The notes below the pieces were generated by a model. It was not told where the DNA came from. It saw nothing but the letters and a program-made list of their open reading frames with translations, and searched no databases. Below are positions 15,248 through 27,972 of a stretch of 40,690 bases of DNA, piece by piece (the stretch's first letter is position 1; each line of letters starts with the position of its first letter). The DNA is taken from NCBI GenBank assembly GCA_014610835.1, contig QQXM01000192.1, positions 2,593 to 43,282 of the forward strand. Reading direction: 5' to 3'. The position numbers and the translations under genes are program-made. The stretch comes from Erysipelotrichaceae bacterium 7770_A6 (lineage in GTDB: Bacteria > Bacillota_I > Bacilli_A > Erysipelotrichales > Erysipelotrichaceae).

Positions 15248-15472
15248 ATGGATCAAAAGACAAATCGAGCAGTGATTGGATACCATGCTGGTTTAAACAT
15301 CACCGTAATCATGCTTTTTATTAGAGGTGTATTACAGGTTACAGCAGCAGATACACTTTCTCATGGGATGGATGCTGCTATCTCTGGTATTGCAGGTATT
15401 GGACATCTTGTATTAGGTGTTTCTATGATTATGCTCTTATTAGCAATCAAGAAAAACTGTGAAGACGAATAA
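15248..15472 (+). CDS. Small two-span membrane protein of unknown function
   Basis: A 74-aa protein with two hydrophobic helices (about residues 16-35, LNITVIMLFIRGVLQV, and 45-68, SGIAGIGHLVLGVSMIML) and short charged ends (KKNCEDE). No family recognised. It has a TATAAT at 15211-15216, no strong ribosome site and an excellent terminator just after the stop, which supports a real single-gene unit. Confidence 0.55.
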   Translation: MDQKTNRAVIGYHAGLNITVIMLFIRGVLQVTAADTLSHGMDAAISGIAGIGHLVLGVSMIMLLLAIKKNCEDE

Positions 15473-15516
15473 AAAACAAGGCATGGTACATTTAAAATGT
15501 ACTATGCCTTGTTTTT
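15473..15516 (+). terminator. Strong, probably bidirectional terminator
   Basis: A long stem: AACAAGGCAT pairs with ATGCCTTGTT and inner GTACATTT with AAATGTAC. It has A-rich sequence before and T-rich sequence after, so it could work both ways, insulating the CRISPR locus from upstream genes. Confidence 0.85.
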
Positions 15517-15697: not shown

Positions 15698-15726
15698 TTG
15701 TGATTGGATAATGTAAGTTTTATAAT
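15698..15726 (+). promoter_or_regulatory. Promoter of the cas operon
   Basis: TTGTGA at 15698-15703, a 17-bp spacer and a perfect TATAAT at 15721-15726, 44 bases before the cas9 start. The rest of the 254-base gap since the terminator is very AT-rich with no gene I can support. Confidence 0.6.
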
Positions 15727-15770: not shown

Positions 15771-18700
15771 ATGGGTGAAAATAATTATATATTTGGTTTT
15801 GACATTGGTATTGGTTCTACAGGTGTTGCGGTAATTAGTGATGATGGAAATCTGGCTTATGATGGAACACATGTATTTAATACTGCTGAAGAAGCTAGTG
15901 AATCTAGAAAAAATAGAGGCGCTAGAAGAAACTTATCAAGAAAAAAATGGAGAAGAAATCAATTGCTTGAAGCTTTTGATGATTTTAATGTTCTATCTAA
16001 ACAAGAAACAAGTCAAAATGGTTATCTTTGCTACACAGTAAATACAGATACAATTCAAAGACCGCTAGAAAAAACAGTTTATCATTTGAGAAAAAAAGGA
16101 TTGTTTGAACAAATTTCAAAGCGTGAATTATTACTTTGTCTATATAACATGCTGCATGCACGTGGACATTTTTTGATGGAAACAATTGATTTTGCAAACA
16201 CAAATACAATTAGTTTTGATGATTTTAAAGAGCACTTCTATACAACAGTAGAAGAAATAATTCATATTTCCGATAATGAAAAACAAAATTTTGAAAATGA
16301 TATTTTGAAACCTGTTTTTTCAGGAAGTATTAAAAGATCAAACGATATTAAAAAAGTATGTGATAATGCGAAATTGACATTAGAAGATGATGAACGAGTT
16401 TCATTGATTGAAGTATTAAAACTGATTAGTGGATATAAAGCAAAAGCAACAAATATCAGTAATAATCTTGAGTATACGAAAGAATCTTTTAATGTTACTG
16501 ATTTGAAAAATGATGAAAATGAACTTCCTGTATTTTTACAGAGTGCTGTTGATTTATACGATTTGATGAACGTTGCACGTATTATGAGTTCTCATAATTA
16601 TCTCTGTGAAGTAGCAGTAGATAAGCTTGATCATTTTGATGAGGTAGCAAAAGATACTCACTCCGATGAGTATAAAAATGAAGTGAAAAATATCAAAGAT
16701 CATTCTTCTAATGGAAAACATTTACGTGTTGTTCGAAATCTTGAAAATGGATATCCTAATGGCTTATATGTAAAAGAAGCTAGAGCTATTTTAAGAAAAC
16801 AGCAGGAATTCTATCCGAAAATTTCTGATGATTTTATTGAAGTATGTGAATCTATTATTTCTGCTAGAATTCCATATTATATTGGCCCACTAAAAAATGA
16901 TGCTAAAAATGCTTGGGTTACAAAGAATGGAAAAATTAAATACAGTTATGCATATTCAATGAAGCAAGCAGATAAACCTGTAGATGAATATGACAGTATT
17001 GAAAAATGGAAGAAGAGAATGATCTCTCATTGCACTTATTTGCCTGAAGAATATGCATTACCTAAAGGTTCTTTTATTGCAGAAACATTTAGTATTTTGA
17101 ATGAATTGAATATTTTAAGAGCAGAAGATGAGAATGGTAATACTTATTATTTGACTTATGATGATAAAGTAAAAATTCTTGATACTTTATTTATGTCCGG
17201 AAAAGAAGTGAAGTATTCAGATGTGCGTGATTTACTGCACCTTAAAAATTTTGGTACAAGAAAACAATCAAATGACAATAGAAAGTTTAATAATAAATAC
17301 ACTTTATATCCAAGAATCTGTAAATTGATTCCATCTTTAAAACTGGATTCAGTGATTGATATTTTTTCTGAAAACGAAAAAGTTAAAGAAATTGAAGAAA
17401 TTGTTCTTTCAATTAATCTTTATAACGAAGAAAAAACAAAAATTGATTATTTCAAAGATAAAAAAGGGTATTCTCAAGAAGTTTCGAAGGCTTTATCAAA
17501 ATTAACATCAAATAGCTTTTATTCATACTCTGAAAAATTTGTTCTTCATCAACCAATGAACGAAAGAGGAGACTCTATGATGTCGTTGTTATTTGAAGAT
17601 AATAATAGATTTTATACAAATGAACAAATGACATTGATTTCTAAAGCAGTAGATGAAGAAGGAAATCCATTAGATTTTTCAGCAAATAAATATGAAAAAA
17701 TCTTAGAAGAAAACGGTGGAAAACTGAACATTGATTTATTGCTGGAAGAAGGAAATCCAATCATTCCTATTTCTAGACCAGTTATTAGAGGACTGAATGA
17801 AGCAATGAAAATGTATACAGAATTAGTGAAAGTATACGGTGTACCAAAACGTGTTGTAATTGAAACGGCAAGAGATTTAAAAGATCATTCCATTATTGGA
17901 ACACAATCTGAAAAGCATTTTGATCAAACAAAGAAATTATATGATTATTTGGTTGAACAATTTGGTGGTGAAAAGAATTTTGCTAAAAAATCAAATGTTG
18001 AAGAATGGGAACAGATTGAATCCTATGTAAATAAGAATAAGGTAAAGATTGAACTATATCTTAGACAAAATGGTGTTGATTTATTAACTGGTGAGAAGAT
18101 TAATATCAACGAATTAGAAAAATATGAAGTTGATCATATTTTACCAAGAGGTTTTGGAGATGATTCACTTGATGATAAAATGCTGATCTCGAAACTGGCA
18201 AATGCAAAGAAAGCAAATAGACTTCCGTTGCAATTCATTGAAAGTGGTGAACAAATTGGAAACCATGTAGTTACCAGCAGTGAATTTATTCATCGTGTTG
18301 AAAACTTATATGATATGAAACTCATTTCTCAAAAGAAGAGAGATAGATTGCTTTTAGAGAATGACAAAGATTTAGAAACGTTTATTAATCAAAATTTGGT
18401 GGATACTCGATATATTATTAGAGAGTTTATGTCCATTTTGAATGCATATAATAAACATCATCATTATGATACACATGTTGTTTCTTTAAGAGCCGCTTAC
18501 ACAAGTCTATATAGAAAGACATTCAACTTTGATAAAGATCGTGGATATGGGCAACAACATCATGCTCATGATGCTGCATTGATTGTAGTAGCGGATAAAA
18601 CATTATCAACATACTATCCTCATTACGATGAAAGAAATCATAGAAATGATTCTGGATTTTCAAAAACATATAGAGATTTTATTCAAGAAATGCAATCAAA

Positions 18701-19769
18701 TGATCAAGCAAAGAAGGATTCTTTGAAATACTTTATTAGAGGAATGTTTAGAAAAGCGTATGGCGTTTCATTTTCAGATTCATCATCAATTATTTCTCAA
18801 ATTAAAAGAACAGTACCATTTTATTCAACAAAAGTAGAAAAGAATTACAAAGGAAAATATTTTGAAGCTACTAAATTAAATAAAAAGATGTATAAGGAAG
18901 ATGCAGTTCTTTCAATTGTTGGAGTTAATGATGATAAGCAAGTATTCAGTGGTGTAAACTGTGCTGCGGTAGATTTTTATAAATATAAAGATAAAAAGGG
19001 AAATAGAAAACATCTAGCTGTTCATATTCCAAAAGTTATCATTGATAAAGATGGAAATATTAATCAAGAAAAATATATAGCATTAATACAAAAGCACTAC
19101 AAAGTTCCTGAGTTATTAGATGAGAACGGAAAACTAAAAACAGGTTATTTCAGATTCAGAGCATTTACAAATGACATTATTTATAACACAGTTGCTAATT
19201 GTCCAATGTTATTCAATATTGGTAGTATTACTAACAAAAAGCTTGAACTAAAGTTTATCAATGTATTCTCTTATGATGATATTTATAAAAATGGGTTGAA
19301 TATTCAAAATGACTTAATCAATGTATATGATTTGAAAACAAAACAAAATCCAGATGGAGTGGCTTTTAATGATATAAGTAAAGATGTATTTATTAGTTAT
19401 GTAAACAGAAAATATTGGAATTTATCAGATAAAGATCCAAAGCTTAAATCTGTAAGTGAAAAGGTAGAGAAAGATAAAAATGTTTATGAATTGTCTAATC
19501 ATCTTTCATATCTGGGTTTGATTATTAATAGAGTGGGAACTCCACCTACAGTAGATGGAAGATGTCTTTTAGTCGCACATAATAATATAGTAAAAGAAAA
19601 TGAAAACGCTCAATACGTAAAATTAAAATATAACATTTTAGGATTACGTTTTATTCAAAGCCCAGATGGTGGTTTAATTATCCAATCTCCAAAAGAACTT
19701 CCAGGAGCATTTACGCAAGTAAAAAAAGAAAAATTTTCTTGGAAAATCTGCAATGATGATATACAATAA
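15771..19769 (+). CDS. cas9: Type II-A CRISPR RNA-guided endonuclease Cas9
   Basis: Dual-RNA-guided DNA nuclease, 1332 aa. RuvC-I is IFGFDIGIGSTG (Asp11), followed by an Arg-rich bridge helix (RKNRGARRNLSRKKWRR, about 45-61) and the REC lobe. RuvC-II is VVIETARD with Glu698. HNH is YEVDHILPRGF with His789 and a metal-binding Asn near 811. RuvC-III is QHHAHDAALIV with His931 and Asp934. All catalytic residues are present, so it should cut both strands. After RuvC-I the usual RLF motif reads HVF, a sign of divergence. AAGGGAG lies six bases before the ATG. cas1, cas2 and csn2 follow, with the tracrRNA between cas9 and cas1. PAM preference cannot be read here. Confidence 0.97.
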   Translation: MGENNYIFGFDIGIGSTGVAVISDDGNLAYDGTHVFNTAEEASESRKNRGARRNLSRKKWRRNQLLEAFDDFNVLSKQETSQNGYLCYTVNTDTIQRPLEKTVYHLRKKGLFEQISKRELLLCLYNMLHARGHFLMETIDFANTNTISFDDFKEHFYTTVEEIIHISDNEKQNFENDILKPVFSGSIKRSNDIKKVCDNAKLTLEDDERVSLIEVLKLISGYKAKATNISNNLEYTKESFNVTDLKNDENELPVFLQSAVDLYDLMNVARIMSSHNYLCEVAVDKLDHFDEVAKDTHSDEYKNEVKNIKDHSSNGKHLRVVRNLENGYPNGLYVKEARAILRKQQEFYPKISDDFIEVCESIISARIPYYIGPLKNDAKNAWVTKNGKIKYSYAYSMKQADKPVDEYDSIEKWKKRMISHCTYLPEEYALPKGSFIAETFSILNELNILRAEDENGNTYYLTYDDKVKILDTLFMSGKEVKYSDVRDLLHLKNFGTRKQSNDNRKFNNKYTLYPRICKLIPSLKLDSVIDIFSENEKVKEIEEIVLSINLYNEEKTKIDYFKDKKGYSQEVSKALSKLTSNSFYSYSEKFVLHQPMNERGDSMMSLLFEDNNRFYTNEQMTLISKAVDEEGNPLDFSANKYEKILEENGGKLNIDLLLEEGNPIIPISRPVIRGLNEAMKMYTELVKVYGVPKRVVIETARDLKDHSIIGTQSEKHFDQTKKLYDYLVEQFGGEKNFAKKSNVEEWEQIESYVNKNKVKIELYLRQNGVDLLTGEKININELEKYEVDHILPRGFGDDSLDDKMLISKLANAKKANRLPLQFIESGEQIGNHVVTSSEFIHRVENLYDMKLISQKKRDRLLLENDKDLETFINQNLVDTRYIIREFMSILNAYNKHHHYDTHVVSLRAAYTSLYRKTFNFDKDRGYGQQHHAHDAALIVVADKTLSTYYPHYDERNHRNDSGFSKTYRDFIQEMQSNDQAKKDSLKYFIRGMFRKAYGVSFSDSSSIISQIKRTVPFYSTKVEKNYKGKYFEATKLNKKMYKEDAVLSIVGVNDDKQVFSGVNCAAVDFYKYKDKKGNRKHLAVHIPKVIIDKDGNINQEKYIALIQKHYKVPELLDENGKLKTGYFRFRAFTNDIIYNTVANCPMLFNIGSITNKKLELKFINVFSYDDIYKNGLNIQNDLINVYDLKTKQNPDGVAFNDISKDVFISYVNRKYWNLSDKDPKLKSVSEKVEKDKNVYELSNHLSYLGLIINRVGTPPTVDGRCLLVAHNNIVKENENAQYVKLKYNILGLRFIQSPDGGLIIQSPKELPGAFTQVKKEKFSWKICNDDIQ
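19739..19767 (+). promoter_or_regulatory. tracrRNA promoter inside the 3' end of cas9
   Basis: TTGGAA (19739-19744), a 17-bp spacer and TACAAT (19762-19767) lie in the last codons of cas9. The start site would be about 19774, exactly where the anti-repeat begins. Confidence 0.6.
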
Positions 19770-19773
19770 AAGT

Positions 19774-19857
19774 GTCAAATCTTACGAATAAATACTAATC
19801 CGGAAGAATTAGAATTATTCAAAAACTATCAAAAATGGTCGATTGTGACCATTTTTT
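19774..19857 (+). ncRNA. tracrRNA
   Basis: Bases 19775-19809 are complementary to repeat positions 1-34: 31 base pairs with one mismatch, one bulged U and one 2x2 internal loop. The loop leaves a 6-bp lower stem at the repeat's 5' end, as in known crRNA:tracrRNA duplexes. A short AT-rich hairpin (about 19806-19820) could be the nexus, and the RNA ends in a terminator. About 84 nt in total, on the + strand, the same strand as the array. RNase III processing and Cas9 loading are expected. Confidence 0.88.
19831..19857 (+). terminator. tracrRNA terminator
   Basis: ATGGTC/GACCAT with a six-base loop, extended by AAAA before and TTTTTT after. cas1 lies 25 bases downstream, so cas1-cas2-csn2 need readthrough or another promoter. 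Confidence 0.9.
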
Positions 19858-19881
19858 AATTATCTGTTGAAAGCTTGAAAT

Positions 19882-20775
19882 ATGGGTTGGAAAACAGTGA
19901 TTATTGGTAGTGAAGCAAAAGTCTCTTTATCTTTGAATAAATTAAAAATTACAATAGGAAATGAATTTCAAAATGTACCATTAGGTGATATTGATACTGT
20001 TATATTTAGCCATAACAGAGTTATTATTACGATTCCACTATTATCCGCATTAGTGGAAAATAATATAAATATAATTATATGTGATGAGAAGAATGATCCA
20101 ATTGGTATATTCCAACCATTTAATGGTCATTCTCTTGTATTCAAACGTTTGAATGCACAAATCAATTGGAAACTAACAAGAAAAAAGAAACTTTGGAAAA
20201 GAATCATTGAATTAAAGATACAAAGTGAAATTGATGCACTGATTTTAGAAAAACGGCAAGTGAAAATCATTGAACAGTTAAAAGTGTATCGAGAGTCTGT
20301 GTATACAGACGATCAAACAAATCGTGAAGCAGCTTCTGCCAGAATGTATTTTACGGAAATGTTTGGAGATGACTTTACTAGAGATATTCCAAGCATTCAA
20401 AATTATGCTTTGAATTATGGTTATAAAATATTGGCTAGCTATATTTCAAGGTGTATTGCTTCTAGAGGGTTGATAACACAACTTGGCATTCACCACATTG
20501 GTGAATCTAATCCATTTAATCTTACATATGATTTTATAGAACCATTGAGAGCAATTATAGATTTATGGGTGATTGAAAGTATTACAGATACGTTTAATGC
20601 GCCATTGAAGCAAGAACTCATTGGAATATTAAATTACAGAGTGTATGTAAAAGATAAATGGATGAGATTGAATGATGCAATTGAAGATATTGTTGATTCA
20701 TATATTGCATATCTTGATGAAAGGTCTAATGAAGTTTTGTTTATAGACCTATCTAAAGGAATGAAAGTTGATTGA
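19882..20775 (+). CDS. cas1: CRISPR integrase Cas1 (type II)
   Basis: Cas1 forms the spacer-integrating complex with Cas2. The 297-aa protein starts GWKTVIIGSEAKVSL, matching the beta-sandwich N-domain of type II Cas1. The three metal ligands fall where expected: Glu149 (NREAASARMYF), His205 (QLGIHHIGESNPF) and Glu220 (YDFIEPLRA). Length is standard. The stop codon shares a base with the cas2 start (TGATG), indicating coupling. Confidence 0.95.
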   Translation: MGWKTVIIGSEAKVSLSLNKLKITIGNEFQNVPLGDIDTVIFSHNRVIITIPLLSALVENNINIIICDEKNDPIGIFQPFNGHSLVFKRLNAQINWKLTRKKKLWKRIIELKIQSEIDALILEKRQVKIIEQLKVYRESVYTDDQTNREAASARMYFTEMFGDDFTRDIPSIQNYALNYGYKILASYISRCIASRGLITQLGIHHIGESNPFNLTYDFIEPLRAIIDLWVIESITDTFNAPLKQELIGILNYRVYVKDKWMRLNDAIEDIVDSYIAYLDERSNEVLFIDLSKGMKVD

Positions 20776-21122
20776 TGATCAAGAATAGATTTATGAGAAT
20801 GATCTTATTTTTTGATCTTCCAGTTACAACTCCTCAAGGAAGAAGAGAATATACAAGATTTGTTAAGTATTTGGATAGTGATGGATTCATTAGAATTCAG
20901 GAATCTGTGTTTTGTAAATTATGTATTAATATTGATTCAGCTAAAACATTAAGTAAAAGAGTAATAAGAGAATGTCCAGATGATGGAGATATCCGTTTTA
21001 TTATTGTTTCAGAAAAACAATATCAAAGTATAACAAATGTTAATGATACGTATTCCTTACAAGAATCTATTACTACAGATGACAGGTGTATTACGATTGG
21101 AGGGATGAATGATGATAATTAA
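20775..21122 (+). CDS. cas2: CRISPR-associated Cas2
   Basis: Structural partner of Cas1 in adaptation, 115 aa from ATG 20775. The ferredoxin-like core shows MRMILFFDLPVTTPQGRRE, followed by FVKYLDSDGFIRIQESVF and the later VSEKQYQSI strand, as in type II-A Cas2. A TTG at 20772 would add one residue but the ATG overlapping the cas1 stop is the better start. Its end overlaps the csn2 start by a few codons. Confidence 0.93.
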   Translation: MIKNRFMRMILFFDLPVTTPQGRREYTRFVKYLDSDGFIRIQESVFCKLCINIDSAKTLSKRVIRECPDDGDIRFIIVSEKQYQSITNVNDTYSLQESITTDDRCITIGGMNDDN

Positions 21123-21987
21123 AAGTAATGAACATACACTAATTATACCTGTTCACAGAGGCTTGCATTTAATTCACGAAATGAACTGTAAATATGAATT
21201 ACTAGAATGTTTGAATTCTTATTTCACTTTGAAGAAAAAGACGAAATGCATAATTATGGATGATGATCATGAATTGATTAGTCCTAAAGACGTGCAGTTT
21301 GTTTATATATCTTCTAAAGAAGATATATCATCTATTTTTGATTTTAAACCAAAGACATTGTTGAATTCTGAGCTTGAAAAATTCATAAATGAAAATCCAG
21401 AAAGTTATAGGTCAATTGAGAGTGTGAGAAATTATCTTAGAGAATTACTTACAGATGAAGGTATGTATAAATTTATGAATATATTAGGAAATGGTATATC
21501 CATTGATTTAGAACTTAAAACAACAAACTTTACGGTTTCGAAATTATTACAATCTTTAAAATTTGAAACAGACCAAATGACAATACAACAGCAATTTATC
21601 ATTTTATATAACTTGTTATTGTATGTTAGTAGAAATCAATTCACGATTGTATATATTGATTTTGAAATTGATAGTGAGTCTATGGAATGGTTAAAAGGGA
21701 TTCAATCTCCTAATAGAATTATATTAGTAAGTAATGAGGCGATTGATGATAATTATGCGGAAGAATTTGATTCAATGATAGTACTTACCACAAATGATTT
21801 TGTAGAAACATTAGAAATAGATAAGAATAAAGCAAACATTATATCTTATGTATTACATCCTATTGTATTAAAACATCCTGAGTATCAAACAGAAAAAATT
21901 ATTCAGATATTGAGTCTTTTTGAAGATGAATCTTCGACTTTTTACGTAGAATTCATAACCGATAATCCTCTAAAAGCCTTTATTTAA
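21112..21987 (+). CDS. csn2: Csn2-like adaptation protein, long variant
   Basis: Position after cas2 and directly before the array marks this as csn2, the type II-A gene for a DNA-end-binding ring protein needed for spacer capture. Of 291 aa, the parts that resemble Csn2 are the C-terminal half with QQQFIILYNLLLYV and FTIVYIDFEIDSESMEW, where canonical Csn2 has a similar beta-strand-acidic turn. Canonical Csn2 is about 220 aa and the S. thermophilus long form about 350 aa, so this length belongs to neither. GGAGGG lies seven bases before ATG 21112; ATG 21109 is also possible. Identification rests mostly on context. Confidence 0.75.
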   Translation: MIIKSNEHTLIIPVHRGLHLIHEMNCKYELLECLNSYFTLKKKTKCIIMDDDHELISPKDVQFVYISSKEDISSIFDFKPKTLLNSELEKFINENPESYRSIESVRNYLRELLTDEGMYKFMNILGNGISIDLELKTTNFTVSKLLQSLKFETDQMTIQQQFIILYNLLLYVSRNQFTIVYIDFEIDSESMEWLKGIQSPNRIILVSNEAIDDNYAEEFDSMIVLTTNDFVETLEIDKNKANIISYVLHPIVLKHPEYQTEKIIQILSLFEDESSTFYVEFITDNPLKAFI

Positions 21988-22001: not shown

Positions 22002-22017
22002 TATAATAGAGCTAACA
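22002..22017 (+). promoter_or_regulatory. CRISPR leader with array promoter -10
   Basis: Only 30 bases separate csn2 from the first repeat. TATAAT at 22002-22007 would start transcription near 22014, just before repeat 1; the -35 (around 21979) is weak. The bases AGCTAACA abut the first repeat and are where new spacers should be placed. Confidence 0.55.
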
Positions 22018-22646
22018 GTTCTTGAGGATTGTATTTATTGGTAAGATTTGATTGTAACTGCTATGCGTGATGAAGTACTGACAGTTCTTGAGGATTGTAT
22101 TTATTGGTAAGATTTGATTCCTTCAGGCACTCTGTAGAATGATAGAATGGTTCTTGAGGATTGTATTTATTGGTAAGATTTGATTGATAAATAGAAAGAG
22201 AGGTATTATAATGAGTTCTTGAGGATTGTATTTATTGGTAAGATTTGATTGGACTGTATGATACTGTTTTCCATGTATGAGTTCTTGAGGATTGTATTTA
22301 TTGGTAAGATTTGATTAAGACGTTAAAAGCGATATTCTCGACTTCCGTTCTTGAGGATTGTATTTATTGGTAAGATTTGATTCAATGAAAAAGCTATTGC
22401 ACTTAAAAGCACGTTCTTGAGGATTGTATTTATTGGTAAGATTTGATTATTGAATGTATAAAGCTATCTATCTATTGAGTTCTTGAGGATTGTATTTATT
22501 GGTAAGATTTGATTCTATATTCTGGTGTGGCATAAATGAATATCGTTCTTGAGGATTGTATTTATTGGTAAGATTTGATTAGTTGTCATGAATGAAATTA
22601 AAAGAAGACAGTTCTTGAGGATTGTATTTATTGGTAAGATTTGATT
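22018..22646 (+). CRISPR. Type II-A CRISPR array, 10 repeats and 9 spacers
   Basis: Ten identical 36-bp repeats begin at 22018, 22084, 22150, 22215, 22281, 22347, 22413, 22479, 22545 and 22611; each starts GTTCTTGAGG and ends AAGATTTGATT. Eight spacers are 30 bp and one (22186-22214) is 29 bp. The terminal repeat is as perfect as the first. Complementarity with the tracrRNA shows the array is transcribed on the + strand, leader at the csn2 side. None of the spacers obviously matches another part of the window. Confidence 0.98.
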
Positions 22647-22722: not shown

Positions 22723-25467
22723 ATGCTTGATGAAAAAGAACTAAGACAAAATAAAGCAAATTATAAACAGTTGTTCGATCAGATACTAAAGTATGATGAA
22801 CAACTTTTATCATATTTAAATGAAAAACAACAGCTAAACACAAAATTGGTTAATGCTGTGAAAAATTATTTTTCATATAAACTACAACTATCTAATATCA
22901 ATCTTAATTCACTTGCTGTGTCTTTTAATGCATCCCATTATGATCTAGAAGTTGTGAATAATGTATATATGTTGAGAGAGTATTTAAGATATTATGAAAA
23001 TGCAAATTTTCTTTATTATCAAAATCATCAAACAATTAAAGAAAACTACGAAATAGCAAAGCAATTGCTTTCTTTTGCATGGATTTTTAAAGGAAAAGCA
23101 ACAAAAACACAAGTTATTAATGCAGCAAATATACTTGTTGATATTAAAAATGCAATGTACTTTGAAAAAATTAATTATTATATAAACTCTTATAAAGAAA
23201 TTAATATACAGAATGCAATTACAGATTTTATAAATCATGAACAAGAATATTGTTCATTGATTAATCAATACTGTGGTACAAAACTCTATATTAAAGATGA
23301 TCCATTAGAGCCTGATTTTGGTCTGTTTACTAAATTAATTAAGGTAACAGATGCTCAAAAAAAGAAGCTGGATATTATTTCATCTGCAATAGATGGATTG
23401 AAAGAAAATGTTAAGAAGAAAGCACTAGTATGTGCCGATTATAAAGCAATTGCTCTTTTAGATACTATTGATGTTGATGAACTGAAAAGGAACATCAAAG
23501 GTTTGAGAGTGAATGCGTTAAAAGAGGGTGGCTATCATACAATTAAGGATATTTTGCGTGTGAAACCCTGGCAATTATCATCTCTTTATGGAATTAGTGA
23601 AGAAAAAGCATATGAAATTACGCATGAAGCTAATGAAATAAAAGATAAAACCAGATCATCTATTAGTTTGAGATTTGATAATCAAAAAAAGACGGAAGAA
23701 GATACGCTCCTATTAAAAGAAATTATTGCGTACACAGATCATTTGGAACTAATTAATGGTTATGATACGATTACTAAAAAGTTTGCAACTTCATATCATT
23801 TAAACATTCAATCTAATGGATATAGTCAAAATGATTGGTATTATCTTACATATGAACAAAAAGAAAAAATGATATCTCTTTTTGAATATATGGATTCTAA
23901 TACACATCATTCCTATATCAATTATGTTGAAGATTTATATCAAAAATGGATTGTAATAGAAAATAGAGTACGATCAGATCACGAAATATGGAATTATTAT
24001 GAACAAAATGCAGCTTCCATTTATTCTATTCTTGATCAGCTAGTTCCAGGTTTATTCAGTGGTGGTGATGCATTCTATGGCTTGCCAAAAGAATTAGCTG
24101 AAGAAATCAAAGAAGAATGTTTCTTCCCTGATGGTTTATTAACAACACTTAGAACATATCAAGAATGGGGTGTGAAATATATTCTTCACCAAAAGAATGT
24201 ATTACTTGGTGATGAAATGGGACTTGGCAAAACACTTCAAGCAATTGCCACAATGGTATCTTTAAGAAATACTGGAGCTAAACATTTTCTTGTTGTGTGT
24301 CCAGCTGCTGTCTTAGTTAATTGGTGTAGAGAAGTTAGTAAGCATAGCAAACTTAGAGCAATCAAAGTACATGGTTCCTCTAGAAATGCTGAATTTAAAC
24401 GATGGATCCGTTTTGGTGGAGTATGCGTTACAACATATGAAACTACAAAGTATTTGGAATTAAAAGATGATTTTAAATATGATTTGTTAGTTGTTGATGA
24501 AGCGCATTATATAAAAAATGTGAATGCCCAACGAACAAAAAACATCATTGAGATTGCTAAAAAAACAGACAGACATTTATATATGACTGGGACAGCATTG
24601 GAAAATAATGTTGATGAAATGATTTCTTTGATCAATCAGTTAAATCCAGGAATTGCTCAAATTGCTGAAAGATATAAATACATGGGTGCCTCTAAAACTT
24701 TTAGAGACAAGATTGCTGGTGTTTATTACAGAAGAAAAGTAAAAGATGTACAGAAGGAATTACCTGATTTAATTGAAGAAGAAGCATGGGTTTCTTTAAC
24801 CTCTGAAGAAGATAGAATTTATAAAAGAGATCTTTATTCAAAGAGTTATTCAGCTATTCGAAAGGTTTCTTGGAATGTCGATGATTTAAAAGATTCATCT
24901 AAGGCAAATAGATTGAAAGATATCATTGAAAATGCAAAAGAAGAAGGAAGGAAAGTTATTGTTTTCTCTTTCTTTAGAGATACTATTGCCAAAATCTATG
25001 ATTTCTTAAATGGTATTTGCTTACCTCCAATCAATGGTTCTATTTCTCCACAGAGAAGACAAGAAATTCTTGATCAATTTAATGATAGTAAGCCTGGCTC
25101 AGTTTTAATTTCTCAAATACAGGCAGGTGGAACTGGATTGAATATTCAATGTGCAAGTGTGGTTGTTATTGCTGAAGCTCAATTAAAACCTTCAATTGAA
25201 AATCAAGCAATTGCTAGGGCGTATAGAATGGGTCAGACATCAAATGTATTAGTATACAAGCTCTTGTGTGAAAATACGATTGAGGAAAAAATGTTAGAAA
25301 GATTAAAACAAAAGCAAGAAATATTTGATGCTTTTGCTGATAAATCATCTGCTGCAGATGCACAAAATCAAAATGAAATATCAGATAAAACATTCCATGA
25401 AATTGTTGAGGAAGAAATTGATCGAATTAATAAAGAAAAGGGTATTGTTCAAGAAGAAAGTGATTAA
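22723..25467 (+). CDS. SNF2-family (superfamily 2) helicase/translocase with HhH-bearing N-terminus
   Basis: DNA translocase of 914 aa. The C-terminal half is a full SNF2 motor: Walker A GDEMGLGKT (residues 496-504), motif Ia region VVCPAAVLVNW, DEAH box VVDEAHYIKN (592-595), motif III MTGTALENN, motif V QAGGTGLNIQ and motif VI AIARAYRMGQ (about 828-838). The N-terminal 450 residues are not a known module to me, except a helix-hairpin-helix-like stretch (about 262-306, ALKEGGYHTIKDILRVKPW) likely to bind DNA. It begins 76 bases after the last CRISPR repeat with no terminator between. No good ribosome site is seen. Possible antiviral motor; function inferred only from context. Confidence 0.85.
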   Translation: MLDEKELRQNKANYKQLFDQILKYDEQLLSYLNEKQQLNTKLVNAVKNYFSYKLQLSNINLNSLAVSFNASHYDLEVVNNVYMLREYLRYYENANFLYYQNHQTIKENYEIAKQLLSFAWIFKGKATKTQVINAANILVDIKNAMYFEKINYYINSYKEINIQNAITDFINHEQEYCSLINQYCGTKLYIKDDPLEPDFGLFTKLIKVTDAQKKKLDIISSAIDGLKENVKKKALVCADYKAIALLDTIDVDELKRNIKGLRVNALKEGGYHTIKDILRVKPWQLSSLYGISEEKAYEITHEANEIKDKTRSSISLRFDNQKKTEEDTLLLKEIIAYTDHLELINGYDTITKKFATSYHLNIQSNGYSQNDWYYLTYEQKEKMISLFEYMDSNTHHSYINYVEDLYQKWIVIENRVRSDHEIWNYYEQNAASIYSILDQLVPGLFSGGDAFYGLPKELAEEIKEECFFPDGLLTTLRTYQEWGVKYILHQKNVLLGDEMGLGKTLQAIATMVSLRNTGAKHFLVVCPAAVLVNWCREVSKHSKLRAIKVHGSSRNAEFKRWIRFGGVCVTTYETTKYLELKDDFKYDLLVVDEAHYIKNVNAQRTKNIIEIAKKTDRHLYMTGTALENNVDEMISLINQLNPGIAQIAERYKYMGASKTFRDKIAGVYYRRKVKDVQKELPDLIEEEAWVSLTSEEDRIYKRDLYSKSYSAIRKVSWNVDDLKDSSKANRLKDIIENAKEEGRKVIVFSFFRDTIAKIYDFLNGICLPPINGSISPQRRQEILDQFNDSKPGSVLISQIQAGGTGLNIQCASVVVIAEAQLKPSIENQAIARAYRMGQTSNVLVYKLLCENTIEEKMLERLKQKQEIFDAFADKSSAADAQNQNEISDKTFHEIVEEEIDRINKEKGIVQEESD

Positions 25468-25719: not shown

Positions 25720-27972
25720 ATGTATGAAATTACACAATGGAATGGAAAACAAGAACTAGCGGAATTAGATAATACAACGATTTCAATTGACCCAATTCTT
25801 TTAAATGATGCCATTTTAAAATTAATGAATAAAGATACAACAATTGAAGATGATGTCATTGATATTGATTTTAATTTTGGTGTGAAAAAAGCGGATAGAT
25901 ATGATTATTGTTTTGCTTTATTTAGTGGTATTTTATCTTCCTTAATAAGTAAGTACGTAAAAATGAGCGGAGATCTAGATATAGATTTAGAAAAAATGGA
26001 TTTTGCTCAATTATTATATTTAGTGAAAGATATAAATATTAAAGTGCAAAAGAATAATGAGAAAGATACAGCTGATATTGAAAAAACTTTGAATAATATT
26101 GAAGAAATTATCAAAGATGCAAATAGTTATAAAAATCTCGTTGTGGATTTTGCTTCTGATTTCAGTATGATGGGTTTATTGATTTCCATTATTGAAAAAG
26201 TATTTGGCAAAGAGATTGGATATGATGAAAATAATAATTTAGTTATAAATGAAGCAAAAGAAACATTTGATAATTTATCATTTCTTGAAAAGGTTGAATT
26301 TGCAATATTTGAATGGTTTTTAGAACAAGTAGATCAATATAAACAAAATGGAAAGTTCAAAGAACAGCTAAAAAATATTCTTGAATGGAGATCCATTGTA
26401 AAGAAGCTGGAACCAATTATTAAAGATTTTTCTCAAATTAATCTATCAAAAGAAGAACTAAAACAATGGTTTGTTAACTTGATTCAAGATAAAAATCAAA
26501 GAATTTCTAAGCTTGATTTCTTGCAGAAAGAGAATATTCCAACACAATTTAATAAAATAATGATTCATACTTATGTACATATTAAAAATCTAATTGAACA
26601 AGTTAAAGAACATAAAATTACAACATTAGAAGGTCTTGAAATTATTAACTTCAATAGAATTGACAATGAAAGAGTAATTTTACGTTTAGAAACAGTATCT
26701 ACTGGAGTCTTCTTTGCAATGGATGCTAGTGCAGCAGTAATACAGGCAAGAAAGTGTGGTGCAGAAGCAAATATTTTTGGTATTCTTAAAGTATTTGCCA
26801 ATACAATTAATTTCTCTAATATTCTTACTTTTACATATGTTGTAAAACAAGATGCCACTTATATCAAAGAAGATATTGATGAAATTTTACATAAGGCAAA
26901 AATAGAAGTTGTTCATCATTGTAAAGATATCTCAGCAGATGAATTAAATTCATATATTTCATTAAATGATCCTGAAACTAGAATTTTATATTCACTCAAA
27001 CTTCATATGATTGAAGAAGATATTCAATGTACAAAATTGAGTGCAGATCAGCAATTAAAGAATGAGTGGAAGAAACAATGGATGGAAGTTTCAAAGAACT
27101 CTTTGCATATGGCAAAACTCTATGAGCCAAATATTCAAAAAGTTTATCAGGCATTAATTACACATGCTGAAAACACAATAGATAATAGAACATGGCTGTA
27201 TAACATTGTTCTAGAATTGTGTCTTTTTAGTCCATATTATCAAATTGATGAAGATGAAAAGAAATATAAAAAACTGAAACTAGTCAATAAGAATCTAGAT
27301 TATATGAAGAACTATTTTTGTGAAGGACAAAAATATGTTTCTTTCAAAGAAATCAAACAGTTTGAATCCTTATATAAACACTATCATGGCTATATAGAAA
27401 ATAAAAATTTAAAAATGGCTGGAGCAGCTGGTGCAGTTGTTGCGGTGGGTGCTGGTGTTGGTGCAGGTGCCATGTTATTTGCTCCACAGATTGCAGTTGC
27501 TTTATTTGGTGGTGCTTTTCCTGGATTGCATGGTGCAGCATTAGTAAATGCAGCACTAGCAGCCGCTGGTGGTGGCTCATTAGTCGCCGGAGGATTTGGT
27601 ATGGCTGGTGGTTCTGTCATCATTGCTGGTGGTGGAGCTCTATTAGGTATGAGTACGGCTAGTGTAGCAACAATGGGATTATTATCCTCTCCAAATTTTG
27701 TGCAGACAGATGATGCGAAGCTACTGGCAAAATGTAATTACGTATTACTGAATCAAATGCATAAAATAGATGTTGTTGTAGCGATTCAGAGAATGACAGA
27801 AGAAAGTTTAAATGACAGTAAAACACAACTAAAAGTTCTAGAAAGTGCAGAAGACAAATCTGATGAATGCAAGAAGACAATAGCTGCATTAAAGAAGAGT
27901 GTCAAATACATGGAAAGAACTAACGATGAATTGAAGAAATTAATTGCTAAAGAAGAGAAGAAGAGTGATTGA
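25720..27972 (+). CDS. Large protein with Gly/Ala-rich membrane-like C-terminal segment, unknown
   Basis: Not recognised. Of 750 aa, the first 560 are soluble, acidic and mainly helical. Residues about 565-660 form a very Gly/Ala-rich hydrophobic stretch in pieces such as GAAGAVVAVGAGVGAGAML, LAAAGGGSLVAGGFGMAG and VIIAGGGALLGM, resembling glycine-zipper segments that pack in membranes. A charged coiled-coil-like tail (LKVLESAEDKSDECKK onward) closes the protein. No signal peptide. Ribosome site AGGGGGA lies about eight bases before the start. Set between a SNF2 motor and a PIN-like nuclease, it could be a membrane-acting effector, but that is inference. GTTATATAA occurs twice upstream (25609 and 25629), possibly regulatory. 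Confidence 0.65.
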   Translation: MYEITQWNGKQELAELDNTTISIDPILLNDAILKLMNKDTTIEDDVIDIDFNFGVKKADRYDYCFALFSGILSSLISKYVKMSGDLDIDLEKMDFAQLLYLVKDINIKVQKNNEKDTADIEKTLNNIEEIIKDANSYKNLVVDFASDFSMMGLLISIIEKVFGKEIGYDENNNLVINEAKETFDNLSFLEKVEFAIFEWFLEQVDQYKQNGKFKEQLKNILEWRSIVKKLEPIIKDFSQINLSKEELKQWFVNLIQDKNQRISKLDFLQKENIPTQFNKIMIHTYVHIKNLIEQVKEHKITTLEGLEIINFNRIDNERVILRLETVSTGVFFAMDASAAVIQARKCGAEANIFGILKVFANTINFSNILTFTYVVKQDATYIKEDIDEILHKAKIEVVHHCKDISADELNSYISLNDPETRILYSLKLHMIEEDIQCTKLSADQQLKNEWKKQWMEVSKNSLHMAKLYEPNIQKVYQALITHAENTIDNRTWLYNIVLELCLFSPYYQIDEDEKKYKKLKLVNKNLDYMKNYFCEGQKYVSFKEIKQFESLYKHYHGYIENKNLKMAGAAGAVVAVGAGVGAGAMLFAPQIAVALFGGAFPGLHGAALVNAALAAAGGGSLVAGGFGMAGGSVIIAGGGALLGMSTASVATMGLLSSPNFVQTDDAKLLAKCNYVLLNQMHKIDVVVAIQRMTEESLNDSKTQLKVLESAEDKSDECKKTIAALKKSVKYMERTNDELKKLIAKEEKKSD

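What the first reader, a model, noticed from the sequence alone, without database searches (positions are those of the whole stretch)
19739..19857. tracrRNA between cas9 and cas1 with promoter in cas9 coding sequence
A 31-pair anti-repeat, a promoter in the last cas9 codons whose start site falls on the anti-repeat, and a terminator are all visible. Its place differs from the S. pyogenes layout and makes the dual guide directly definable from sequence.
Basis: seen in the sequence. Interest (0 to 1): 0.6.

Follow-up and report, generated by a model that had tools for sequence, protein, structure and literature searches.

The report
Cas9 tracrRNA between cas9 and cas1
This is the small helper RNA (tracrRNA) that pairs with the CRISPR guide RNA so that Cas9 can work; it is real and conserved in related bacteria, but its place between cas9 and cas1 is already known from Streptococcus thermophilus, so it is mostly ordinary.

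Summary
A sense-strand tracrRNA gene (about 19774-19857) fills the 112-nt gap between cas9 and cas1 of a type II-A locus in an Erysipelotrichaceae genome. Its anti-repeat makes 32 pairs with the locus's own repeat (-37.2 kcal/mol; next best in the window -27.7), and no second anti-repeat was found in the 2.28-Mb assembly. Alone, the promoter is no better than chance. Comparison rescues it: all ten loci compared have [T/C]TGGNN, exactly 17 nt, then TANNNT over the end of cas9, although the distance from the -35's TGG (a Cas9 Trp codon) to the stop codon varies from 9 to 27 nt. Each anti-repeat fits its own repeat best (1 of 40,320 matchings), with compensatory changes; the terminal hairpin covaries. 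Five other Cas9 loci in the family have cas9 and cas1 abutting. The place is not new: S. thermophilus CRISPR1 has it, and the fourth gene folds most like its long Csn2. Verdict: a well-supported new member of a known kind. By-product: cas1 starts 5-25 nt after the tracrRNA terminator, in 9 of 10 loci without a Shine-Dalgarno sequence, so the adaptation genes are probably expressed by read-through. Expression and PAM are untested.

The parts
15698..15726 (+). probable cas9 promoter (TTGTGA-17-TATAAT), 45 nt upstream of cas9
   Evidence: promoter scan, 10 of 12; consensus match only, conservation not tested
15771..19769 (+). cas9, 1332 aa
   Evidence: TIGR01865 E 1e-167; HNH_4, Cas9_RuvC, Cas9_REC
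19739..19767 (+). tracrRNA promoter: -35 TTGGAA (19739-19744), -10 TACAAT (19762-19767), nested in the last codons of cas9
   Evidence: same hexamer positions and exact 17-nt spacing in 10 loci; alone not above chance
19774..19857 (+). tracrRNA, about 84 nt
   Evidence: covariance model hit 19774-19861, 83.7 bits, the only strong one in the window; one per genome, always at this place
19774..19809 (+). anti-repeat (32 pairs with the repeat; GG internal loop at 19802-19803; lower stem 19804-19809)
   Evidence: duplex fold and permutation test
19812..19820 (+). weak nexus-like hairpin GAAUUAUUC; relatives GAUUGAUUC, GAUUAAUUC; comparable with the S. pyogenes nexus (comparison from memory)
   Evidence: alignment of ten loci; not formed in the minimum-energy fold
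19831..19857 (+). terminal hairpin and T-tract: intrinsic terminator and probable Cas9-bound 3' hairpin
   Evidence: hairpin in all ten loci; 6 of 9 consensus pairs with compensatory changes
19882..20775 (+). cas1, 297 aa; no Shine-Dalgarno; starts 25 nt after the terminator hairpin
   Evidence: TIGR03639 E 5e-79
20772..21122 (+). cas2
   Evidence: TIGR01573 E 4e-18
21109..21987 (+). csn2-like, 292 aa
   Evidence: no sequence match to Pfam, NCBIfam, PADLOC or PDB; predicted fold best matches Stu0660 (3zth), the large Csn2 of S. thermophilus: Foldseek E 2.7e-5; VIA Z 10.1, rmsd 4.1, 202 residues
22002..22007 (+). -10 TATAAT of the array promoter; ends exactly 10 nt before repeat 1 in all nine loci that have an array
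22018..22646 (+). CRISPR array, 10 identical 36-nt repeats, 9 spacers of 29-30 nt

Best explanation
19774-19857 encodes the tracrRNA of a type II-A CRISPR-Cas9 system. RNA polymerase starts at a promoter nested over the last codons and stop codon of cas9; the transcript begins at or just before the anti-repeat and ends at a hairpin/T-tract about 25 nt before cas1. The anti-repeat pairs with the repeats of the pre-crRNA, the duplex is presumably cut by RNase III, and the lower stem, GA/GG internal loop, short nexus and terminal hairpin hold the guide in Cas9. Shown by computation: anti-repeat, its co-evolution with the repeat, conserved promoter spacing, conserved terminal hairpin, one copy per genome. 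Inferred: transcription, processing, Cas9 binding.
For: Own repeat:anti-repeat -34.6 to -40.3 kcal/mol in nine loci; swapped pairs about -13 to -30, except between close relatives (L027/L028, L030/L031). The true matching is the best of 40,320 permutations of eight loci; repeat position 15 is UA, CG, AU or GC in different loci. Promoter hexamers with exact 17-nt spacing in 10 of 10 loci while the Trp-to-stop distance is 9, 24 or 27 nt. Covariation in the terminal hairpin. Single-guide fold z = -6.1. The covariance model finds exactly one copy in each of nine genomes of the order, always in the cas9-cas1 gap. No other anti-repeat in the assembly.
Against: No RNA data. The promoter alone scores at chance level. 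The terminator of this copy has few G-C pairs. No protospacer was found, so activity of the system is unproven. The free tracrRNA can also fold on its own anti-repeat.
Confidence: 0.96

Rival explanations
1. The tracrRNA is real, but it is made mainly by processing (RNase III or others) of a long cas9-cas1-cas2-csn2 mRNA; the 'promoter' is only the coding sequence of the Cas9 C-terminus.
For: The tracrRNA lies co-directionally inside the operon; the -35 TGG is also the Trp codon of a conserved F-[SYT]-W motif; the promoter score in this window is at chance level.
Against: The spacing to a -10-like hexamer is exactly 17 nt in ten loci even when that hexamer lies wholly outside the coding sequence (L030, L031, L042), where coding constraint cannot act; six of ten have a perfect TATAAT.
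Confidence: 0.1
2. The RNA in the gap is the tracrRNA, but its terminator doubles as a gate for adaptation: cas1-cas2-csn2 have no promoter of their own and are made only by read-through of the tracrRNA terminator, from the cas9 or the tracrRNA promoter, and poorly translated for want of a Shine-Dalgarno sequence. This adds to the best explanation rather than replacing it.
For: 5-25 nt between hairpin end and cas1 ATG in all ten loci, so no room for an ordinary promoter after the terminator; no Shine-Dalgarno in 9 of 10 loci, while cas9, cas2 and csn2 of the window have one.
Against: No expression data; a promoter inside the tracrRNA gene giving a leaderless cas1 mRNA is not excluded; one relative (L042) does have AGGAG; termination efficiency was not measured.
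Confidence: 0.35
3. Chance complementarity or a degenerate relic of a repeat, without function.
For: Anti-repeats can be decayed repeats; the window is A+T-rich, which raises chance pairing.
Against: About 8 sd beyond other windows; compensatory changes across loci.
Confidence: 0.01

Closest known systems
Streptococcus thermophilus CRISPR1-Cas (type II-A)
   Same: tracrRNA in sense orientation between cas9 and cas1 (PMC3401199, citing Deltcheva 2011); long Csn2 (350 aa there; predicted fold here matches Stu0660 best)
   Different: Cas9 there 1121 aa, here 1332 aa with only local similarity (match to 6rj9 over 667-1044); the repeat and tracrRNA sequences were not compared
Enterococcus faecalis T11 CRISPR3-Cas (type II-A)
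   Same: predicted tracrRNA between cas9 and cas1 (PMC4894674)
   Different: not compared in sequence
Bifidobacterium merycicum type II-A
   Same: predicted tracrRNA between cas9 and cas1 (PMC4521832)
   Different: on the minus strand there, sense here; double-stemmed nexus there
Faecalibaculum rodentium FrCas9 (type II-A)
   Same: type II-A; same family (own knowledge)
   Different: tracrRNA upstream of cas9 and antisense to the cas genes (PMC8931148)
Streptococcus pyogenes type II-A
   Same: 6-bp lower stem, internal loop, short nexus plan (from memory)
   Different: tracrRNA place and orientation; only one 3' hairpin after the nexus here, two in Spy-like guides (PMC7606464)

Membership tests
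[quoted passage not shown]
   32 pairs, -37.2 kcal/mol; best of 40,320 matchings
tracrRNA of a type II CRISPR-Cas system | encoded near cas9, outside the array | tested here: met
   between cas9 and cas1; one copy per genome
tracrRNA of a type II CRISPR-Cas system | own promoter and terminator | tested here: met
   conserved by comparison in ten loci; sequence evidence only
tracrRNA of a type II CRISPR-Cas system | nexus hairpin after the lower stem | tested here: inconclusive
   position and partial pairing conserved, 2-3 bp only, not in the minimum-energy fold
tracrRNA of a type II CRISPR-Cas system | expressed, co-processed with pre-crRNA by RNase III, needed for Cas9 cleavage | not testable with these tools
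   needs RNA data and biochemistry
CRISPR-Cas type II-A | cas9, cas1, cas2 with an array in the same direction | tested here: met
CRISPR-Cas type II-A | fourth gene csn2 | tested here: met
   no profile match by sequence, but Csn2 structures are the top six Foldseek hits of the predicted model; Stu0660 Z 10.1, rmsd 4.1, 202 residues; model mean pLDDT only 62.6

The most novel reading that the evidence does not exclude
In this Cas9 lineage the tracrRNA terminator is a conserved gate on memory formation: cas1-cas2-csn2 can be transcribed only by read-through of the tracrRNA hairpin and cas1 lacks a ribosome-binding site, so guide production and spacer acquisition share one transcript fork, and Cas9 or crRNA bound to the nascent tracrRNA could change termination and so link adaptation to guide supply.
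Probability: 0.2. Interest if true: 0.6.

Novelty: new member of a known kind. Interest (0 to 1): 0.3.

Why it matters
It defines the complete guide RNA for a Cas9 lineage (44-54% identical among members, only locally similar to any Cas9 with a solved structure) found here in Erysipelotrichaceae and one other family of the class. It gives a clean case of a promoter kept inside the coding end of a cas gene, and suggests a testable rule by which the adaptation genes are held low. It does not change the picture of how tracrRNA works.

Tried and rejected
Rfam: no family at gathering score in the window. Single-sequence promoter scan: not above shuffles, so not used as evidence alone. PAM: no match of the window array or of the L028 array in 50,697 phage records, none of five spacers exact in IMG/VR; no PAM inferred. 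No relative of this Cas9 on plasmids. S. pyogenes-style long tracrRNA that represses cas9: the longest word shared between the tracrRNA 5' region and the cas9 upstream region is 7 nt, so no support. Other anti-repeats in the assembly: only weak 14-24 nt matches, E 0.4 or worse. Csn2 identity by sequence: no match in four libraries, resolved by fold.

Full report
WHAT IS THERE. The window lies in an assembly of 2.28 Mb (233 contigs, 98.4% complete). The locus reads, all on the + strand: cas9 15771-19769, cas1 19882, cas2 20772, a 292-aa fourth gene 21109-21987, and an array of ten identical 36-nt repeats 22018-22646.

THE OBSERVATION. -35 TTGGAA 19739-19744, 17 nt, -10 TACAAT 19762-19767, the cas9 stop at 19767-19769, the paired anti-repeat 19774-19809 and a hairpin with T-tract ending at 19857 are all present. 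RNAduplex gives 32 pairs at -37.2 kcal/mol. Over 7,982 50-nt windows on both strands the mean is -12.2 (sd 3.0) and the best other place -27.7. The opposite-strand reading is weaker (-31.1), and the terminator direction agrees with the + strand. No other anti-repeat was seen in the whole assembly.

WHY IT IS MORE THAN CHANCE. The promoter by itself is not: such sites are as common in shuffles. Nine relatives at 44-54% Cas9 identity (39% over the C-terminal part for L042, from another family of the class) were compared. All have a 96-121-nt cas9-cas1 gap. In all ten, [T/C]TGGNN lies 17 nt before TANNNT. The TGG is the codon of a Trp in a conserved F-[SYT]-W motif at the Cas9 C-terminus, so the -35 is partly under coding constraint; the -10 and the spacing are not: the Trp codon lies 27, 24 or 9 nt before the stop codon, and in L030, L031 and L042 the -10 lies wholly outside the gene. 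In the other seven loci the cas9 stop codon itself overlaps the -10. The combined rank of these sites among positions of the last 1.5 kb of each cas9 gives p about 1e-16 by Fisher's method; the loci are related, so that number is too optimistic.

CO-EVOLUTION. The repeats differ between loci and each anti-repeat follows its own: of 40,320 ways to match eight tracrRNAs to eight repeats, the true one is the best. Many positions carry compensatory changes, for example repeat position 15 with U-A, C-G, A-U and G-C. The lower stem GUUCUU/AAGAAU and the unpaired positions 7-8 hardly vary. The terminal hairpin keeps its pairing with both-side changes in six of nine pairs. The guide as a single RNA folds with lower stem, internal loop, upper stem and terminal hairpin, z = -6.1. 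Between them lies a nexus-like element (GAAUUAUUC here, GAUUGAUUC or GAUUAAUUC in relatives) that pairs over only 2-3 bp; its likeness to the S. pyogenes nexus is a comparison from memory. A covariance model of nine tracrRNAs finds exactly one copy in each of nine genomes among 315 of the order, always in the cas9-cas1 gap.

LINEAGE-SPECIFIC LAYOUT. Five other loci of the same family with a distant Cas9 (24-27% identity) have cas9 and cas1 abutting (-4 to +5 nt). In L045 and L046 the best anti-repeat is clearly antisense and just upstream of cas9; in L047 and L048 weaker duplexes point to the same place, and in L044 none was resolved. FrCas9 of Faecalibaculum is likewise upstream and antisense (PMC8931148).

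THE FOURTH GENE. It matches no profile in Pfam, NCBIfam or PADLOC and no PDB sequence. Its predicted model (mean pLDDT 62.6, pTM 0.67) has Csn2 structures as the six best Foldseek hits and Stu0660, the large Csn2 of S. thermophilus, as the best VIA match (Z 10.1, rmsd 4.1 over 202 residues; next rows Z 8.5 and below). The system is therefore II-A with a large-Csn2-like protein.

WHAT IS KNOWN. A sense tracrRNA between cas9 and cas1 is the layout of S. thermophilus CRISPR1 (PMC3401199), is predicted for E. faecalis T11 CRISPR3 (PMC4894674), and is predicted on the other strand in B. merycicum (PMC4521832). That tracrRNA place and orientation vary and go with Cas9 clades is established (PMC3936727; PMC7606464). 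I found no paper in the library that describes a tracrRNA promoter inside cas9, which is weak evidence of novelty only.

BY-PRODUCTS. (1) In all ten loci cas1 starts 5-25 nt after the terminator hairpin, and in nine of ten there is no Shine-Dalgarno sequence, while cas9, cas2 and csn2 of the window have one. An ordinary promoter does not fit after the terminator, so cas1-cas2-csn2 are probably made by read-through; this is inference. (2) In all nine loci with an array, the array's -10 ends exactly 10 nt before repeat 1 and csn2 ends 25-46 nt before it, so the pre-crRNA should start 3-4 nt before the first repeat. Both guide RNAs thus start from promoters pressed against or nested in the end of the preceding cas gene.

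LIMITS. No RNA evidence, no PAM, and no comparison with the S. thermophilus CRISPR1 sequence itself.

Noticed in passing
window 19857-19882; L038, L039, L026-L031, L042: cas1 starts 5-25 nt after the tracrRNA terminator hairpin in ten loci and lacks a Shine-Dalgarno sequence in nine; suggests expression of the adaptation genes by read-through.
   Followed up: partly
window 22002-22018 and the same place in L026-L031, L038, L039: The array -10 hexamer ends exactly 10 nt before the first repeat in nine of nine loci, with a leader of only 25-46 nt after csn2.
   Followed up: partly
window 21109-21987: 292-aa fourth cas gene without any sequence-profile match, Csn2-like only by predicted fold, closest to the large Csn2 Stu0660.
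   Followed up: yes
window 22723-25467: SNF2-type helicase that starts about 75 nt after the last repeat, with DrmD- and DpdE-like matches (PADLOC); possible neighbouring defence gene.
   Followed up: no
window 25720-27972: 750-aa protein without Pfam or NCBIfam match, weak match to the candidate defence family PDC-M09A.
   Followed up: no
window 15472-15516: Near-perfect 22-bp inverted repeat followed by a T-rich tail, a strong terminator-like hairpin between the upstream genes and cas9.
   Followed up: no
window 22611-22646: The last repeat of the array is identical to the others, with no degenerate terminal repeat.
   Followed up: no
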